From positions 1 through 30,615 of IMG/VR virus record IMGVR_UViG_3300006928_000045: a stretch of DNA of 30,615 nt; one strand, 5' to 3'. Both the position numbers and the translations under genes were made by a program. The notes beneath the pieces were generated by a model, which was given only the letters and a program-made list of their open reading frames with translations, was not told the DNA's origin and did not search any database. The DNA comes from a virus. Positions within the stretch are counted from its first letter, which is position 1. Every line of letters starts with the position of its first letter. Below, one piece after another: positions 1,174 to 30,355 of the stretch.

Positions 1174-1504
1174 TGAAAACTTAAAACATTTTGAAAAAGG
1201 ACAAAGCGGAAATCCTAAAGGCAGACCAAAAGGCAGTAAGAACCGCAGCACAATAGTTAAGGAAATATTAAACTTAATGGTGCAAGTAAAAGATGATGAA
1301 GGTAATGATAAATGGCAAAGCAATGAGTATCTAATAGTACAGGCAATGGTAAACAAAGCAATTGAAAAAGGTGATGTTGCTGCGTTCAATGCGTTGTATG
1401 ATAACCTATATGGCAAACTAAAGGATACTGTTGATATGAATACTACTGAAACAATAAACCACGATTTTAAAAAGCTAATTAGTGGAATTAAGTTTAAGCA
1501 GTAA
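1163..1504 (+). CDS. terS: Terminase small subunit-like protein (DUF5681-type)
   Basis: A 113-residue protein whose N-terminus, FEKGQSGNPKGRPKGSKN (residues 10-27), is the hallmark of DUF5681-type proteins found next to large terminases. The Arg/Gly/Lys-rich stretch suggests nucleic-acid binding. The rest is predicted helical (IVKEILNLMVQ; AMVNKAIEKGDVAAFNALYDNLYG). It ends 23 bp inside the large terminase gene, which supports the role of small subunit: recognising phage DNA and handing it to the packaging motor. The assignment rests on motif and synteny. Confidence 0.75.
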   Translation: MSNNENLKHFEKGQSGNPKGRPKGSKNRSTIVKEILNLMVQVKDDEGNDKWQSNEYLIVQAMVNKAIEKGDVAAFNALYDNLYGKLKDTVDMNTTETINHDFKKLISGIKFKQ

Positions 1505-2690
1505 ATACAGAGTATTCCATACATCAGATGCACGTTACTTTATTGTAACAGGCGGCAGGGGTTCAGGTAAATCATTTGCAATAAACACCATACTGTTAAT
1601 GCTTACCTATCAAGCAGGGCATACCATACTATTTACAAGATACACATTACGAGCAGCAGCCATTAGTATCATACCAGAATTTATTGAGAAGTTAGAATTG
1701 TTAAACGTTTCACAGGAGTTTAAAATAACACGTGATGAAATAATAAACAAAGGCAACGGAAGCAAAATAATATTTCGTGGGATTAAAACCTCATCAGGTG
1801 ATCAAACAGCTAATCTAAAATCATTGCAGGGTATCACTACTTGGGTTATGGATGAGGCAGAAGAATTAAACGATGAGGATATCTTTGATAAGATTGATTT
1901 AAGTGTACGTAACAAAGCACAGGATAATAGAGTGATACTAATATTGAATCCAACTACAAAAGAACATTTCATATATCAACGTTGGTTTGAATCACGCGGC
2001 ATTGAAGCAGGTGCAAACATAACTAAAGAAGATACATCATACATACACACTACCTACAAGGATAACATAGAGAATCTTTCACCAAGTTATATTAAGCAAA
2101 TAGAAACAATGCAGAAGCGCAGACCAGAACGCTACAAGCACACAATACTTGGTAGTTGGTTAGATAAAGCAGAGGGTGTTATATTTGATAATTGGATAGT
2201 AGGAGAATTTAAGCAGGTTGGCAAAATAGTATTTGGGCAGGATTACGGTTTCAGTAATGATCCAAGTACATTAGTAAAAACAAGCATAGATAAATCAAAC
2301 AAGGTTATATATGTGCAGCTATGTTTCTATCAACCTAAACTAACCACAAGTGAGATAGCAGTATTGAATAAAAAGTTTGCAGCTAATAACTTAATTGTTG
2401 GTGATAGTGCTGAACCACGTTTAATAACTGAACTGAGCGCACATTGTAATATAGTGCCTGCAATCAAAGGGCAAGGCAGCATTACATACGGTATTAGTTT
2501 ACTACAGGATTATGATTTAGTAATAGATCCAGAAAGCACAGATATAATAAAGGAGCTTAACAACTATTGTTGGTTAGAAAAGAAAAGCCAAACACCAGTA
2601 GATAATTTTAATCACGCACTTGATGCATTACGTTATGCAGTTAGTTATCAATTGCAGAATCCACATTTAGGTGAGTATCATTTATATTAA
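1482..2690 (+). CDS. terL: Terminase large subunit (packaging ATPase and nuclease)
   Basis: A 402-residue packaging motor of the PBSX/Terminase_3 kind. The ATPase has Walker A GGRGSGKS (24-31), Walker B WVMDEAEE (121-128, catalytic Glu125) and coupling motif LNPTT (155-159). The C-terminal RNase H-like nuclease has its acidic residues at Asp254 (GQDYG), Asp308 (GDSAEP) and Asp381 (HALDALRY). The protein pumps DNA into the prohead and cuts it. No ATG is available before the ATPase core, so GTG 1482 is the likely start, overlapping the small subunit by 23 bp. It is the last gene of the early transcript before a 432-bp noncoding region. Length is normal for the family. Confidence 0.95.
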   Translation: MELSLSSKYRVFHTSDARYFIVTGGRGSGKSFAINTILLMLTYQAGHTILFTRYTLRAAAISIIPEFIEKLELLNVSQEFKITRDEIINKGNGSKIIFRGIKTSSGDQTANLKSLQGITTWVMDEAEELNDEDIFDKIDLSVRNKAQDNRVILILNPTTKEHFIYQRWFESRGIEAGANITKEDTSYIHTTYKDNIENLSPSYIKQIETMQKRRPERYKHTILGSWLDKAEGVIFDNWIVGEFKQVGKIVFGQDYGFSNDPSTLVKTSIDKSNKVIYVQLCFYQPKLTTSEIAVLNKKFAANNLIVGDSAEPRLITELSAHCNIVPAIKGQGSITYGISLLQDYDLVIDPESTDIIKELNNYCWLEKKSQTPVDNFNHALDALRYAVSYQLQNPHLGEYHLY

Positions 2691-2784
2691 AATAAAACAA
2701 TTAATTAAGTATCTTAAGTTCATTGATAAAAAGAAAATGGAGTATATGATTAAAGCAGGCAGAGCAATGTTTTAATTGTAGCGT

Positions 2785-2843
2785 GGCTTAAGCCCTCCTT
2801 AAGCATTAAGATAAGAAAAGATAAAATAAGATATATATGCAAA
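2785..2843 (+). repeat. 59-bp stem-loop and AAGATAAG repeat, intergenic copy
   Basis: By eye this matches 27631-27689, inside the replication initiator gene, at 49 of 59 positions without gaps. It opens with a perfect 7-bp stem and 5-base loop (GCTTAAG, CCCTC, CTTAAGC at 2786-2804) and continues as a purine-rich run of AAGATAAG-like units, ending ATATGCAAA. The loop differs from the other copy while the stem is kept. Phage initiators often bind repeats in their own gene, so this is a candidate replication origin or initiator binding site. There is no T-run after the stem, so it is not an ordinary terminator. Confidence 0.6.
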
Positions 2844-2859
2844 AAAAGTTTAAAAAAGT

Positions 2860-2889
2860 TTTGTATTTAAATAATTATAATTATATTTG
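2860..2889 (+). promoter_or_regulatory. Bacteroidetes-type promoter for the noncoding RNA
   Basis: TTTG (2860-2863) and TATATTTG (2882-2889) are separated by 18 bases, a full match to the TTTG / TAnnTTTG promoter of Bacteroidetes. The spacer ends in the palindromic ATAATTATAATTA (2871-2883), which recurs in the same position relative to the -7 box of the early promoter at 24329-24341. It reads into a stretch without a plausible gene and with a terminator about 180 bp later. Confidence 0.7.
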
Positions 2890-2893
2890 AAAT

Positions 2894-3075
2894 ATGAAAA
2901 GTAGTTATTTAGCTTAAAGACGTTTAAGTTATCCAATTATTAACAAGTGTATTTTAATACAAAAACGGAGAATAAATAACGAAATAAGAAACATAAAACA
3001 AGAGGCAGCCGCGTCTTAGACAGCGTAAGTCCTCATAACATTAAAGAGCTATTCACTATGAGTAGCTTTTTTTTT
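2894..3075 (+). ncRNA. Candidate phage noncoding RNA, about 180 nt
   Basis: The stretch has a strong promoter in front and an intrinsic terminator at its end, with only a seven-codon frame (MKSSYLA, 2894-2917) inside. It can fold a small hairpin at 2948-2961 (TGTAT, TTTA, ATACA). It also has a more GC-rich nested stem at 3002-3034: GAGG with CCTC outside, then CGC with GCG and GTC with GAC around a UUA loop. GC content here is clearly above the AT-rich surroundings, which suggests a selected structure. It does not fit a tRNA. The 5' end is estimated from the promoter. A long leader RNA for the tail operon is an alternative if the terminator is read through. Confidence 0.5.
3043..3075 (+). terminator. 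Intrinsic terminator before the tail operon
   Basis: AAAGAGCTA (3043-3051) pairs with TAGCTTTTT (3063-3071) with one G-U pair, and a run of nine T (3067-3075) follows. The loop can form an extra TCA/TGA pair. It ends the candidate noncoding RNA and separates early from late transcription. Confidence 0.7.
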
Positions 3076-3081
3076 ATATTT

Positions 3082-3120
3082 GTGCATAACACTAAGCACT
3101 TTTTTTTACATTATATATAA
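3082..3120 (+). promoter_or_regulatory. Late-type hairpin/promoter module, copy 1 (tail operon)
   Basis: GCATAACACT (3084-3093), 13 bases, then TACATTA (3107-3113), followed by TATATAA just before ATG 3123. The same two blocks with the same 13-base gap occur before the scaffold gene at 11147-11176. The first block also lies in a hairpin, GTGC (3082-3085) with GCAC (3096-3099), followed by eight T, so it may act as terminator and promoter together. No TTTG box is found at the usual distance, so it is not a standard host promoter. A promoter for the phage sigma-like protein is the favoured reading. Confidence 0.55.
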
Positions 3121-3122
3121 CT

Positions 3123-3752
3123 ATGAAAGCACAAATTAAAGTACCAGAATCACTTGAAGAAATTACACTTAAGCAATACCAGAAGTGGTTAAAGATTTCA
3201 GAAGGCAAAGAACTTGATTCATTTTTACAACAAAAGATGATAGAGATATTTTGCAATGTACCGCTTAAAGAGGTGTTAACTATTAAAGTAAATTACGTTA
3301 ATCAAATATGTACAGCTATAGATGAATTGTTTAAAAAGCAACCTATGTTTATTAATAGGTTTAAATACAAAGGTGTACAATACGGCTTTATACCTAAACT
3401 GGATGATATTACATTTGGAGAATATGTTGATCTGGATACTTACCTTGCTGATTGGAGTTTAATGCATAAAGCAATGAGTGTATTATACAGGCGTATTAAT
3501 TTTGAAAAGGATAAAGAATACATTATTGATCCTTATGAAAGTGCAGAAGCATACGATTTGCAAAGCATAACTTTAGATATTGTATTTGGTGCGCTTGTTT
3601 TTTTTTACAATTTAAGCAACGAGTTACAGAATCGTATCCTGAATTATTTAGCGACACAGGAGGAAGTGGAACTGCCTCAAGATTTGAGGGCTTCAGTACT
3701 AAATGGGGATGGTATCAATCCATCTATGGATTATGCAAAGGGGATATTATGA
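3123..3752 (+). CDS. Tail assembly chaperone, zero-frame product (G-like)
   Basis: A 209-residue cytoplasmic protein, first gene of the tail operon. It has a mostly helical, charged N-terminus (LEEITLKQYQKWLKISEGKE) and a mid part FIPKLDDITFGEYVDLDTYL that I recognise from Bacteroidetes phage tail regions. The gene carries a T9 run at 3598-3606 with the in-phase heptamer T_TTT_TTT. Slipping back one base there enters a frame that is open to 3865. A short product plus a longer frameshifted product is the arrangement of the lambda gpG/gpGT tail chaperones that coat the tape measure before tail tube assembly. Unusually, the tape measure gene is 4.7 kb downstream rather than adjacent. Role inferred from frameshift architecture and context. 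Confidence 0.65.
   Translation: MKAQIKVPESLEEITLKQYQKWLKISEGKELDSFLQQKMIEIFCNVPLKEVLTIKVNYVNQICTAIDELFKKQPMFINRFKYKGVQYGFIPKLDDITFGEYVDLDTYLADWSLMHKAMSVLYRRINFEKDKEYIIDPYESAEAYDLQSITLDIVFGALVFFYNLSNELQNRILNYLATQEEVELPQDLRASVLNGDGINPSMDYAKGIL
3599..3605 (+). other. Programmed -1 ribosomal frameshift site (T_TTT_TTT)
   Basis: Within the run of nine T the zero-frame codons are GTT TTT TTT TAC, giving a canonical X_XXY_YYZ slippery heptamer. Before the slip the chaperone frame encodes ALVFF. After it, the -1 frame continues LQFKQRVTESYPELF and stays open for 86 residues to TGA 3863-3865. Both frames encode protein-like sequence after the slip, which argues against simple decay. A weak ACGA/TCGT stem (3619-3635) may help; no strong pseudoknot is evident. 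Confidence 0.65.
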
Positions 3753-11129: not shown

Positions 11130-11140
11130 AATTTTTTTGC

Positions 11141-11170
11141 AAAAACGCATAACACTTAACGTTTTTTTTT
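11141..11170 (+). terminator. Intrinsic terminator after the tail operon
   Basis: AAAAACG (11141-11147) pairs with CGTTTTT (11160-11166) around a 12-base loop, and the T-run continues to 11170. It closes the operon that ends at 11129. It overlaps the second promoter module, whose GCATAACACT block starts in the stem and fills most of the loop. Confidence 0.65.
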
Positions 11171-11190
11171 ACATTAAGTATATATAATAA
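11147..11190 (+). promoter_or_regulatory. Late-type hairpin/promoter module, copy 2 (head operon)
   Basis: GCATAACACT (11147-11156), 13 bases, then TACATTA (11170-11176) and a TATATAATAATAA stretch before ATG 11198. This repeats the layout at 3084-3113 exactly in spacing. The flanking stems differ but still pair (GT with AC in copy 1, AC with GT in copy 2), which looks like covariation. Copies lead the tail and head operons only. Best read as a phage-specific late promoter fused to a terminator. Confidence 0.55.
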
Positions 11191-23204: not shown

Positions 23205-24281
23205 GTGAGTAATAAAAAAAGAAACTTAAAGGCGCACCACAACCGCAGGGCAGAAGAAGGTAATCCAAAATACAGGTTAAATGAACAAGAAGCGAATTTA
23301 ATTCGTGAGTATAGGAGAATCCAGCAGGAGGCAGAAAGCGCAGGATTAAATCCTAAAGATGTGCATAGTGGTTGGATAAAATCAAAGGAAGCAAGTATAT
23401 ACTTTAAGAATCCACATCATAAAAAAGAAGATGTAAAAAAGCTGTATAAAGATTTAGTTAATGATTTAAAGGAATATTCACCAGAATATCCAACTATTAA
23501 AAGACCTAAACAAATTGATGGGCATTTATTTTTTTGTTGCCCAAGTGATTTACACATTGGTAAATTATGCAAATCTTTTGTAAGCGGCGAGGAATACAAC
23601 AGCCAGATAGCTGTATTACGTGCTTTAGAAGGCGTTAGAGGCTGTATTGAGAAAGCTAAAGGGTTTCATATAGATAAGGTAGTTTTCTTGCTGTCAGGAG
23701 ATCTTTTACACGTTGATAATTTAAGGAACACTACCACAGCAGGAACGCCACAGGATGTGGATGGTTTATTTAGCGATAATTTTTTACTTGCAAAAAGGTT
23801 AATGGTTGAGATTATTGAACTATTAATGCAGTTAGCAGATGTTCACGTAATGTACACAAGTGGCAACCACGATCATATATCTGGTTTTTTAATGGCACAA
23901 ATTTTACAAGCGCATTTTAGAAAAAGCAAAAACATTACTTGGGATATTAGTTTACAGATGCGTAAATACTATAGGTATAATGAAACATTAATTGGTAGTT
24001 GTCACGGTGATAAAGTTAAATGGGGGTTATTACCTATGTTAATGGCAGATGAATCAAGGGATTGGAGCGATACTAAATACAGATATATGTTTACGCAGCA
24101 CGTTCACCACAAAGTAACGAATGACTTTATAGGTGTAACATTGGAAAGTTTACGCAGCCCATCAGAAGCAGATTCGTGGCATCATAAAAGTGGCTATCAA
24201 TCATCAAACAATAAAGCAATAGAAAGCTTTATTTTTCATAAGCAACACGGACAGGTTGCCAGAATTACACATTTGTTTTAA
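23205..24281 (+). CDS. Calcineurin-like metallophosphoesterase
   Basis: A 358-residue enzyme with all metal-binding motifs of the calcineurin-like superfamily: DLH (115-117), GD (165-166), GNHDH (220-224), HGD (267-269) and H-V-H-H (299-302). The 100-residue N-terminus is helical and basic. Such phage proteins may be nucleases or phosphodiesterases acting on DNA or nucleotides. The substrate cannot be read from sequence. The start is GTG 23205, immediately after the spanin stop. It is the last gene of the late block, followed by the early promoter. Confidence 0.85.
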   Translation: MSNKKRNLKAHHNRRAEEGNPKYRLNEQEANLIREYRRIQQEAESAGLNPKDVHSGWIKSKEASIYFKNPHHKKEDVKKLYKDLVNDLKEYSPEYPTIKRPKQIDGHLFFCCPSDLHIGKLCKSFVSGEEYNSQIAVLRALEGVRGCIEKAKGFHIDKVVFLLSGDLLHVDNLRNTTTAGTPQDVDGLFSDNFLLAKRLMVEIIELLMQLADVHVMYTSGNHDHISGFLMAQILQAHFRKSKNITWDISLQMRKYYRYNETLIGSCHGDKVKWGLLPMLMADESRDWSDTKYRYMFTQHVHHKVTNDFIGVTLESLRSPSEADSWHHKSGYQSSNNKAIESFIFHKQHGQVARITHLF

Positions 24282-25334: not shown

Positions 25335-26069
25335 ATGAAAAAAGATCATTTAAGTTACAGCGCATTATGCCAGTTTAAAAAATCTCCTAACCATTTACTT
25401 GCGTATTGGAACAAGGAAACTAAAACAACTGATGCAATGCACTTTGGACAGATAATACACAAGATGTTATTACAGCCAGAATCCTTTAAAGATGATTTTG
25501 CTGTGTTTGAAGGCGCAAGGCGTGCAGGTAAAGCGTGGCAAGAGTTTAAAGCGGATCAAGATAATAAAACTATTATTAAACAGCAGGAGTTAGATGAAGC
25601 AAACAGAATCATAAACAATTCAATGCAGCACGAAGCATTTGCAGAAATGTTAAAAAATGCAACAGCTAAAGAACAAAAGTTAAATTGGAATTATAAAGAT
25701 GTTGATTTCATTGGCTATGCTGATCTAATTACGGAGTTTAACGGCAAGCAATGCGTTGTGGATATAAAAACTACTAACGATGCAGGCAGCAGGTTCTACA
25801 GGGATTTATATTACAACGATTATAAAATGCAACTTGCGATGTACACAGAGCAATTTGGTAAAGAGTATGATGCTTATATAGTAGCAATTGAAACAAGCAC
25901 ACCATTTAACGTACAAGTTTATAAATTAGATGAAAGTTTACTATTCAAAGGATGGATGGATTACGATCACTATGTAGATAAATACAATCAATGGGATGGT
26001 AAGCCGCAGGGATATAGTAACGCAGTAATTGAGGTTGCTACTGATATAGAAGAAATTATTAATAAATGA
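25335..26069 (+). CDS. PD-(D/E)XK exonuclease (RecE/PDDEXK_1-like)
   Basis: A 244-residue nuclease. It has the helix HFGQIIHKMLLQP (36-48), the core FIGYADLI with Asp130, VVDIKTT with Asp143 and Lys145, and KMQLAMY with Gln166 and Tyr170, which together define exonucleases of the RecE / Cas4-like branch. It would resect DNA ends for annealing-type recombination, together with the Rad52-like candidate at 24821. The next small gene overlaps by 4 bp. Length is typical. Confidence 0.85.
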   Translation: MKKDHLSYSALCQFKKSPNHLLAYWNKETKTTDAMHFGQIIHKMLLQPESFKDDFAVFEGARRAGKAWQEFKADQDNKTIIKQQELDEANRIINNSMQHEAFAEMLKNATAKEQKLNWNYKDVDFIGYADLITEFNGKQCVVDIKTTNDAGSRFYRDLYYNDYKMQLAMYTEQFGKEYDAYIVAIETSTPFNVQVYKLDESLLFKGWMDYDHYVDKYNQWDGKPQGYSNAVIEVATDIEEIINK

Positions 26070-27008: not shown

Positions 27009-27327
27009 AGAAATAGCAAAAGAATTAAATAAATTTGCACAAAAAATAGCAGAACTATATTCAAAAAAAGATAGGGAAGGTAATTATAATAATGAAGATT
27101 TTAAACTAAAAGAAGCAATACCAACTTCTGATCATACTGCTACTGTTATAATGGAAAAAAATACTGGTAAATTAGCTGCTTATTTTTTTTATTATATTAA
27201 AAGCGGGAAAAGTAAAGGTTGGAAATATTTTATACCAACAGATTCTCATATTACAGGTATGAGAGCTTTTGAATATTATAAACTACAATGCGAAAGAATA
27301 AACTATAAAGAAAATTTTGATAACTAA
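27001..27327 (+). CDS. Early protein of unknown function (108 aa)
   Basis: A 108-residue protein with a helical start (KEIAKELNKFAQKIAELYSK), a strand-rich middle (HTATVIMEKNTGKLAAYFFY, GWKYFIPTDSHITGM) and a charged end. No known motif. It overlaps the helix-turn-helix gene by 8 bp and precedes the initiator gene, so a replication role is possible. Nothing stronger is visible. Confidence 0.7.
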   Translation: MNKEIAKELNKFAQKIAELYSKKDREGNYNNEDFKLKEAIPTSDHTATVIMEKNTGKLAAYFFYYIKSGKSKGWKYFIPTDSHITGMRAFEYYKLQCERINYKENFDN

Positions 27328-27333
27328 TCAACT

Positions 27334-27948
27334 ATGAAAGAACTACCTTATTTTAAATTTTATCCTAACCAATGGATTACAGGATCAATTATCTTTATGG
27401 ATTTAGATGTGCAAGGCGCGTTTATGAAGATCTGCTGCTACTACTGGAGCAAAGAATGCAACGTATCCAGAGATCAAGTTAAAACATTAGTACCGCACCA
27501 ATGGGGCAAACTACTTGATAGTGAGCTACTTAAGATTGAAGAAGATAACATTAGAATTAAATGGCTTGATGAACAATACAAAGAAAGGTTAAAAGAACAT
27601 AAACGAAATGTAAGCAACGGAAAGAAGGGGGGCTTAAGCAGGGCTAAAGCATTAAGAAAAGATAAGATAAGAAAAGATAAATATGCAAATGATAATTTAC
27701 TTAAAGTAAATAAAGATATAAACACATATAAAAGATTTGCTCATTTATCTATGAGTTTAGATGAGTTTAAAAAATTAGAAGAAAATTACACTAAAGATCA
27801 AATTGATTCTGTATGTGATGCAATTCAAAACTTTAAAAAAAATACAAATTATAAAAGTTTATATTTAACTGCTAAGAATTGGCTAAAGAAAGAACAAACA
27901 AAAAAAGAATTAGAAACAAGTAAAGGATTTAAATCACCGTGGGATTAA
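27334..27948 (+). CDS. Replication initiator (replisome organizer)
   Basis: A 204-residue protein. The N-terminal part YFKFYPNQWITGSIIFMDLD matches the start of winged-helix phage initiators (DUF1376 / Lin1244-like). Residues about 91-116 form a Lys/Arg-rich linker (GKKGGLSRAKALRKDKIRKD). The C-terminal domain (SMSLDEFKKLEENYTKDQID, then NYKSLYLTAKNWLKKE) resembles the DnaD-type C-terminal module. It would bind the origin and load the helicase encoded next, whose GTG start it overlaps by 10 bp. The linker DNA is the second copy of the 59-bp repeat (27631-27689), consistent with an origin inside the gene. Confidence 0.75.
   Translation: MKELPYFKFYPNQWITGSIIFMDLDVQGAFMKICCYYWSKECNVSRDQVKTLVPHQWGKLLDSELLKIEEDNIRIKWLDEQYKERLKEHKRNVSNGKKGGLSRAKALRKDKIRKDKYANDNLLKVNKDINTYKRFAHLSMSLDEFKKLEENYTKDQIDSVCDAIQNFKKNTNYKSLYLTAKNWLKKEQTKKELETSKGFKSPWD
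27631..27689 (+). repeat. 59-bp stem-loop and AAGATAAG repeat, copy in the initiator gene
   Basis: Second copy of the repeat at 2785-2843 (about 49 of 59 identical, no gaps). It holds the same 19-base stem-loop geometry (27632-27650, one A-A mismatch, loop CAGGG instead of CCCTC) followed by AAAAGATAAG units. It encodes the basic linker of the initiator, so it serves as both coding sequence and possible initiator binding site. Confidence 0.6.
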
Positions 27949-28847
27949 AAGGATATAAAGTAACAGAAGCTAAAGATATAATTAGCAAGATATATAAACA
28001 CAGGGATAACTTTAATCAAAAGGGTAAGTACTTAGGTTGGAAAAGTTTAGATGAGTTTTATAGTATGCAATTAGGAAACTGCACCGACTGGACAGGTTTT
28101 CCTATGAGTGGTAAAACACAGGTTTTAATGGAGTGCTTACTAAACACAAGTAAGTTCTATAGCTGGAAGCATCTTGTTTATTTTCCTGATGTTGGTAGTA
28201 ATGTAGAAATAGTTGCTGATTTAATACATAAACTAACAGGTAAAAGTTTTAATCCATTAGAAAAAAATGTAATTAAAGATATTGAAATTACAAATAGTTT
28301 AGATTGGATATTTGAACACTTTAAAATATTAACTAAAGAAGATGTTAAAGCAAAGATGACACCGTTTGAATTTTATGATTATGCCGTTGAACTAAAACAA
28401 AAACACGGATTACAAACAGCAAGTATTGATAGCTGGAAAGATTTAAGCCATCCATATAATTTATACGGTGGTTACGCACAATATTTAGAAGTGGTGTTGC
28501 CATATAGAAACCAAATAGCAGAAGATAATGATTTACACTTACATACAATCATACATCCTAAGCTAACTGAAAAAGTAAACGGTAAAAGAAGTGTGCCATC
28601 TCCTTACGATTTAAAAGGTGGTTCTGAATGGTTTAATAGTGGTAAATGTATGATAACAGTACATCGTGAAGATTTAACTCATAATTTAGCAATGATTAAC
28701 TTTAACAAGATTAAACCACGTTCAGTTGGTAACATAGGGCGGCTTTTATTATGGTTTGATAAAGAAAAGTTTTTATATTACGAACAGGATAATCCAGCAC
28801 CAAATATTTACAATAAGGTGTACGCACAAGAAAAACAAAAAGAATGA
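27939..28847 (+). CDS. Replicative helicase (DnaB/T7 gp4-like RecA-fold ATPase)
   Basis: A 302-residue RecA-fold ATPase. Walker A is GFPMSGKTQ (53-61), the Walker B strand is TASIDSW (160-166, Asp164), then HTIIHPKL (202-209) with the sensor His, and DLKGGSEWF (224-232) typical of the DNA-binding loop region. The family is the TOPRIM/primase-less helicase branch of phages. It would unwind DNA at the fork. GTG 27939 overlaps the initiator gene by 10 bp, an arrangement that fits a loader-helicase pair. No primase gene is recognised, so priming probably depends on the host. Confidence 0.8.
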   Translation: MGLKGYKVTEAKDIISKIYKHRDNFNQKGKYLGWKSLDEFYSMQLGNCTDWTGFPMSGKTQVLMECLLNTSKFYSWKHLVYFPDVGSNVEIVADLIHKLTGKSFNPLEKNVIKDIEITNSLDWIFEHFKILTKEDVKAKMTPFEFYDYAVELKQKHGLQTASIDSWKDLSHPYNLYGGYAQYLEVVLPYRNQIAEDNDLHLHTIIHPKLTEKVNGKRSVPSPYDLKGGSEWFNSGKCMITVHREDLTHNLAMINFNKIKPRSVGNIGRLLLWFDKEKFLYYEQDNPAPNIYNKVYAQEKQKE

Positions 28848-30212: not shown

Positions 30213-30355
30213 ACGAATTACGACAAACAAAGGATACTGTTTATGAACATCCATATTATCCAGTAGAAAACGGCTTAAATTACTTGTGTGCTATATATCC
30301 AAACGATGCAGATCTTGGAGCAGCCATAAGATTACACTTTGATAAATATAAATAA
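30209..30355 (+). CDS. Small early protein (48 aa)
   Basis: A 48-residue protein (MNELRQTKDTVYEHPYYPVE, then NGLNYLCAIYPNDADLGAAI, then RLHFDKYK). It is ATGA-coupled to the previous gene and TAATG-coupled to the nuclease. It is aromatic-rich with one Cys. No family is recognised. Its close fit in the gene chain argues for a real product. Confidence 0.6.
   Translation: MNELRQTKDTVYEHPYYPVENGLNYLCAIYPNDADLGAAIRLHFDKYK

What the first reader, a model, noticed from the sequence alone, without database searches (positions are those of the whole stretch)
2785..2843. 59-bp stem-loop repeat shared with the replication initiator gene: candidate origin
Seen: about 49 of 59 bases match 27631-27689 without gaps. 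The 19-base stem-loop keeps its geometry while the loop changes completely (CCCTC against CAGGG). AAGATAAG units follow in both. In the intergenic copy the same reading frame has three stops, and similarity ends sharply at both edges, so a functional site is more likely than a gene relic. Known: initiators of many phages bind repeats in their own gene.
Basis: partly seen in the sequence, partly recalled or inferred. Interest (0 to 1): 0.7.

Follow-up and report, generated by a model that had tools for sequence, protein, structure and literature searches.

The report
Phage origin site copied beside terminase
A short DNA array inside a marine phage's replication-starter gene has a second, non-coding copy next to its DNA-packaging gene, kept in most relatives, which looks like the paired replication sites of the Bacillus phage SPP1 in an unrelated group of viruses.

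Summary
In detail: 49 of 59 bases match without gaps (83%, E 8e-13 within the genome). It is conserved far beyond this window. Of 15 near-complete genomes including the window, 13 carry exactly this pair: one copy inside the initiator gene and one 3.9-6.2 kb further on, in the same orientation, between terL and the next gene. Inside the gene, synonymous variation is almost nil over the 16 codons that encode the array (0.010 against 0.265 expected), so the DNA itself is selected. The element is better read as short iterons (GCTNAAGC + 3 bp, 11-bp step) followed by AAGAT-type pentamers than as a stem-loop: the hairpin is never perfect in the gene (0 of 69) and shows no compensation. The gene copy differs from the intergenic copy mainly where the intergenic letter would make a TAA stop. 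The array follows the initiator type, not the terminase. Best reading: initiator-binding origin sites arranged like SPP1 oriL (inside gene 38) and oriR (non-coding, late region). Origin activity, binding and fork blocking are inferred, not shown. GC skew gives no support. A minority of relatives has the initiator but no second copy.

The parts
2785..2843 (+). Intergenic copy of the array: two 8-bp units GCTTAAGC (2786-2793) and CCTTAAGC (2797-2804) at an 11-bp step, then ATT and AAGAT-type pentamers (about 2808-2834)
27631..27689 (+). Copy inside the initiator gene: GCTTAAGC (27632-27639) and GCTAAAGC (27643-27650), then ATT and the pentamer array (about 27654-27681)
27634..27681 (+). Codons 101-116 of the initiator: almost no synonymous variation in 77 distinct relatives
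27334..27948 (+). Initiator (replisome-organizer-like): winged-helix-like N-terminal domain, linker of low confidence (within 99-126) encoded largely by the array, helical C-terminal domain
   Evidence: phrog_29280 4.9e-19 and phrog_13246 'replisome organizer' 4.7e-4; AlphaFold2
27939..28847 (+). Neighbouring helicase-like ATPase gene
   Evidence: phrog_5482 1.5e-73; primase/helicase families 1.5e-11 and 2.1e-11
1482..2690 (+). Terminase large subunit, upstream of the intergenic copy
   Evidence: PF04466 8.4e-36, PF17288 8.6e-20
2844..3122 (+). Variable cassette slot between the intergenic copy and the next conserved gene: AT-rich stretch, probable small RNA, terminator 3043-3071

Best explanation
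The two copies are binding and unwinding sites for the phage's own initiator. The copy inside the initiator gene, in the stretch that encodes the linker between the two protein domains, is most likely the main origin of replication: the initiator binds the short iterons and the adjacent pentamer-rich, AT-rich DNA is opened for the helicase encoded next door. The copy at 2785-2843 is a second, accessory initiator site in the late region beside terL, comparable to SPP1 oriR; it may act as a late origin or as a block that stalls forks coming from the first site and helps the switch to concatemer synthesis for packaging. Shown here: pairing, conserved place and orientation, DNA-level constraint, link to initiator type. 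Inferred: binding, origin activity and any fork block (the last step perhaps 0.35 likely).
For: 13 of 15 near-complete genomes (28 kb or more, window included) hold both copies with at most 2 mismatches to the motif; background matches begin at 6-7 mismatches. Distance from gene copy to intergenic copy 3.9-6.2 kb, same strand, in all 18 genomes measured. Second copy between terL and the next conserved gene in 62 of 75 loci, 53 of 62 distinct intervals. Synonymous difference 0.010 over codons 101-116 against 0.265 for amino-acid-matched codons, 0 of 20000 draws as low. The gene copy avoids in-frame TAA: base 4 of unit 2 is T in 0 of 69 gene copies and 38 of 59 intergenic copies; N of AGANAAGA is A in 69 of 69 and T in 59 of 59. 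Where the initiator is visible, the second copy is present in 31 of 35 contigs with this initiator (32 when G033 is read by hand) and in 0 of 3 with an unrelated DnaD-like initiator, whose terL is 75-81% identical to the window's. That unrelated initiator sits in the same slot upstream of the helicase (G030; phrog_2514 3.4e-29) and carries its own 11-bp repeats followed by a 9-bp array in its linker. SPP1: both origins consist of direct repeats plus an AT-rich unwinding region, oriL within gene 38, oriR in a late-region segment with moron genes (PMC6316719, passages).
Against: No binding, replication or coverage data. GC skew does not point to either copy. L013, L065 and L074 have the initiator but no second copy beside terL. 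The window's own gene shows no significant 11-bp periodicity (19/33, 60 of 300 codon shuffles as high); the iteron reading rests on relatives. Similarity between the two copies of one genome exceeds that between genomes only slightly (0.706 against 0.688; 4 of 10000 permutations as high), and the spacer-type agreement in 32 of 33 pairs amounts to about one event on the tree. The structural matches of the N-terminal domain are weak (Foldseek best E 0.54; Z at most 5.2).
Confidence: 0.7

Rival explanations
1. The array is mainly a conserved recombination junction. Homologous exchange at it swaps initiator C-terminal domains at one copy and cassettes at the other; sequence conservation reflects use as a crossover site, not initiator binding.
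For: Initiators up to 97% identical over codons 1-115 diverge abruptly at or soon after the array end into different tails. Flavobacterium phages share the C-terminal part of a related protein from residue 144 on at 98.8% while only 37% of the query matches. The slot around the intergenic copy holds different cassettes.
Against: A crossover site alone does not explain a fixed non-coding copy at one place beside terL, the near-total synonymous constraint across diverged N-terminal domains, or the link to initiator type. It can coexist with an origin.
Confidence: 0.15
2. The intergenic copy is the packaging (pac/cos) signal read by the terminase, as it lies beside terL.
For: It starts within 10 nt of the end of the terL match in 33 of the 62 loci that have it (counted).
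Against: Relatives with terL 75-81% identical but another initiator lack it, and the same array sits inside the initiator gene. L013, L065 and L074 have terL but no copy beside it.
Confidence: 0.05
3. The element acts in RNA as a stem-loop (antitermination, decay or translation signal) in two transcripts.
For: 31 of 59 intergenic copies can form a perfect 7-bp stem.
Against: 0 of 69 gene copies form it; the variable pair 5 shows A-T, A-C, T-T, A-A and T-C combinations with no compensatory change in the intergenic set; some lineages have more than two units (G027). No RNA family matches above its threshold.
Confidence: 0.05
4. The intergenic copy is a relic of a duplicated initiator gene.
For: 83% identity to a coding stretch, with stops in the same frame.
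Against: It is conserved at one place across relatives with terL 76-100% identical, with fixed intergenic-type letters (T in 59 of 59 at AGANAAGA), and in the window the similarity does not run on into the flanks.
Confidence: 0.03

Closest known systems
Bacillus phage SPP1 oriL / oriR with initiator gp38 (G38P)
   Same: One site inside the initiator gene, a second in a non-coding late-region segment with moron genes; repeats and AT-rich DNA; helicase gene nearby (SPP1 facts from passages of PMC6316719 and PMC3485210).
   Different: No sequence relation between the initiators was shown. The sites are 3.9-6.2 kb apart against 12-13 kb. Binding and origin activity are demonstrated for SPP1 only. 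The second site is missing in some relatives here.
Phage lambda ori inside gene O
   Same: Repeats with inner symmetry plus an AT-rich stretch inside the initiator gene, in a protein with an N-terminal DNA-binding and a C-terminal partner-binding domain joined by a flexible linker (passages of PMC6022878).
   Different: Lambda has four iterons with 18-bp inverted repeats. A second non-coding copy is not mentioned in the passages read.
DUF1376-like phage proteins (phrog_29280; Cellulophaga phi10:1, Leeuwenhoekiella Arctus_1, Flavobacterium morran9-1)
   Same: Related N-terminal domain; repeats and AAGAK-type arrays in the linker part of the gene.
   Different: Different repeat sequences; no second copy outside the gene found in the stretches read. 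Pfam DUF1376 is below its cut-off in the two members it matched and absent for the window.

Membership tests
SPP1-type paired origin (oriL in initiator gene + oriR elsewhere) | Matching repeat array inside the initiator gene and at one distant non-coding site | tested here: met
   13 of 15 near-complete genomes
SPP1-type paired origin (oriL in initiator gene + oriR elsewhere) | Direct repeats plus AT-rich unwinding element at both sites | tested here: inconclusive
   Pentamer/AT-rich part clear; 11-bp repeats clear in relatives only
SPP1-type paired origin (oriL in initiator gene + oriR elsewhere) | Initiator binds both sites; theta replication starts at the in-gene site | not testable with these tools
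   needs binding and replication assays
Replisome organizer / initiator family | Sequence match to known replisome organizers | tested here: inconclusive
   phrog_13246 4.7e-4 over residues 132-191 only; no Pfam family at E <= 0.01
Replisome organizer / initiator family | Place beside the helicase-like gene; replaced there by a DnaD-like loader in a relative | tested here: met
DUF1376 (PF07120) | Score above the curated cut-off | tested here: not met
   window no match; best relative 21.1 bits against 30.1
RNA stem-loop element | Pairing kept by compensatory changes | tested here: not met

The most novel reading that the evidence does not exclude
The paired arrays are both initiator-bound fork-pausing sites and hot spots of modular exchange: pausing at the in-gene copy drives swaps of the initiator's C-terminal domain, pausing at the terL copy drives the switch to concatemers and the turnover of cassettes beside it. 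This would be an SPP1-like two-site replication strategy reached independently in a widespread uncultured phage group.
Probability: 0.25. Interest if true: 0.72.

Novelty: new member of a known kind. Interest (0 to 1): 0.52.

Why it matters
It gives a sequence-based origin candidate, with strong evolutionary support, for a large group of uncultured phages, and a natural comparison set: lineages with both sites, with only the in-gene site, and with an unrelated initiator and neither site. That opens the role of a second initiator site (late origin, or fork block that triggers concatemer formation, as proposed for SPP1) to comparative and experimental test. The stop-avoiding differences between the copies also show how a DNA site is fitted into a reading frame.

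Tried and rejected
Stem-loop as the conserved feature: rejected. GC skew as a locator of the origin: uninformative. 11-bp periodicity as a general test: at lag 11, 0-5 of 300 codon shuffles were as high in 9 of 19 initiator genes (G018, L066, G024, G025, G030, G019, phi10:1, Nekkels_2, Arctus_1); weak in G027 and G026 (12 and 29 of 300); not significant in the window, L056, L020, G028, G020, morran9-1, lillamy9-1 and tooticki6-1. So it is not claimed for the window by itself. Own-genome likeness of the two copies: small effect, none in the pentamer part (0.679 against 0.680), and about one independent event. Relatives in bacterial genomes: 201 pattern matches, none confirmed. Fold search: weak winged-helix-like matches only; the model has mean pLDDT 66.7. 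Rfam: one sub-threshold match, L20 leader, 21.1 against 58.7 bits, dismissed. Literature: five searches; from these I cannot say that nothing is in print on this phage group. Papers were seen as passages only (PMC6316719, PMC3485210, PMC6022878), the rest as search listings.

Rows and choices: near-complete means 28 kb or more among 38 records picked for length from the 159 loci, plus the window; 25 of the 38 records were fetched, a few longer ones only up to 20000 bases. The terL and initiator searches kept the best 80 loci each, out of 590 and 199 confirmed, so counts lean to close relatives. Identical sequences were merged where 'distinct' is written. In one search G033 was scored unknown by the script because its terL is split by the contig ends; one search shows its copy at 525, just after terL. 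In one search the initiator was not visible in 47 of 85 contigs (37 with, 7 without a second copy, 3 unknown), which say nothing about the link to the initiator. In one search codons whose amino acid differs from the window's were left out. One search leaves out 6 of 81 loci in which the next conserved gene was not reached.

Full report
Observation. The window is a circular phage record: its first and last 123 bases are identical. 2785-2843 lies between the terminase large subunit gene and the gene at 3123. 27631-27689 lies in the gene 27334-27948, next to a helicase-like gene.

Relatives. terL and initiator searches gave 80 loci each. The downstream region of terL was read directly and the motif context extracted. 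A degenerate motif built from both copies was then scanned in 26 records including the window: true copies have 0-2 mismatches and background starts at 6-7. Of 15 near-complete genomes, 13 have both copies, G020 has only the gene copy, and G030 has neither. In 18 genomes the intergenic copy lies 3899-6248 bases downstream of the gene copy on the same strand. Between terL and the next conserved gene the copy is found in 62 of 75 loci, 53 of 62 distinct intervals. In 33 of the 62 it starts within 10 nt of the end of the terL match; in others, cassettes lie between.

DNA-level constraint. In 77 distinct initiator genes, codons 101-116 vary synonymously by 0.010 on average; codons matched for amino acid elsewhere in the gene give 0.265 (sd 0.051), and 0 of 20000 draws were as low. 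The edges are sharp: codons 99, 100 and 117 vary freely (0.52, 0.34, 0.50). This is the strongest evidence that the stretch works as nucleic acid.

What the element is. Units GCTNAAGC separated by 3 bp recur at an 11-bp step; some relatives have more units (G027). They are followed by AAGAT/AAGAA pentamers. Because the units are near-palindromes, two of them always suggest a hairpin, but the hairpin is imperfect in all 69 distinct gene copies and shows no compensatory change in 59 distinct intergenic copies. The two copies differ at fixed places where the intergenic letter would create TAA in the gene: unit 2 base 4 (T in 0 of 69 against 38 of 59) and AGANAAGA (A in 69 of 69 against T in 59 of 59). 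I read this as one DNA site fitted to a reading frame; that is inference.

Link to the initiator. Contigs in which this initiator can be seen have the second copy in 31 of 35 cases by script, 32 when G033 is read by hand; the clear exceptions are L013, L065 and L074. Three contigs with an unrelated initiator (L060, L063, L081) have none, although their terL is 75-81% identical to the window's. The unrelated initiators of G030 and G019 carry other 11-bp repeats and a 9-bp array in their linkers, and no second copy was found. More distant cultured phages, Cellulophaga phi10:1 and Leeuwenhoekiella Arctus_1, also have significant 11-bp repeats and pentamer-type arrays inside the related gene. So an origin-like array in the linker of the initiator gene seems common, while the second copy belongs to this lineage.

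Protein. The window's initiator matches phrog_29280 and weakly a replisome-organizer family, no Pfam family. AlphaFold2 gives a winged-helix-like N-terminal domain (ten-residue blocks of 79-90 over residues 21-90), a linker mostly under 50 that coincides with the array, and a helical C-terminal part of low to moderate confidence. Structural matches are weak.

Recombination. Initiators up to 97% identical over codons 1-115 diverge abruptly at or soon after the array end into different tails: 50 of 77 have an EVQKLL-type tail, 22 a PYL/ST-type, 3 the long part as in the window, 2 other. The array therefore also marks a junction of modular exchange.

Against. GC skew does not mark either site. 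The likeness of the two copies within a genome is only slightly above that between genomes and reflects about one change on the tree. The second copy is dispensable in some lineages. Nothing here shows binding or replication.

Comparison. SPP1 has oriL inside gene 38 and oriR in a non-coding late segment with moron genes, both of direct repeats plus an AT-rich unwinding element; gp38 binds both, and its complex at oriR is proposed to stall forks and trigger the switch to concatemers (passages of PMC6316719 and PMC3485210). The window's arrangement works like that by anatomy. The phage group also encodes nucleases and a Holliday-junction-resolvase-like protein of the kind used in that switch: exonuclease VIII-like 25335-26069, DNA repair exonuclease-like 23205-24281, and a RusA-like resolvase, scanned as the G030 gene that by eye resembles the window gene running across the record's ends at 30355. 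Membership is not claimed beyond the arrangement: the initiators were not shown to be related, and binding was not tested.

Verdict. A genuine, conserved DNA element, most likely a pair of initiator sites (in-gene origin plus accessory site beside terL): a new member of a known kind.

Noticed in passing
window 2991-3080: Conserved hairpin GAGGCAGCCG...GTAAGTCCTC followed by an intrinsic terminator (3043-3071); in relatives the closing pairs change together (GAGG/CCTC, GAGC/GCTC), which suggests a small structured RNA.
   Followed up: partly
window 3069-3119 and 11132-11182: 75% identical leader-like repeats directly before the genes at 3123 and 11198; probably a phage promoter or leader.
   Followed up: no
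window 27681 onwards; L085, L091, L095, L162: The initiator's C-terminal part is exchanged at or just after the end of the array between close relatives.
   Followed up: yes
G028 3500-3550 and 27030-27060: The gene copy of G028 matches the upstream units of its own intergenic copy almost letter for letter, as if the two had exchanged sequence.
   Followed up: no
window 2844-3122; L017, L024, L027, L045: The interval around the intergenic copy is a cassette slot: inserted genes, small ORFs with their own promoter-like sequence, or RNA hairpins in different relatives.
   Followed up: partly
window 2690-2778: Possible short ORF of about 27 residues just after terL without a clear start; a similar short ORF follows terL in L058 and L063 (read).
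   Followed up: no
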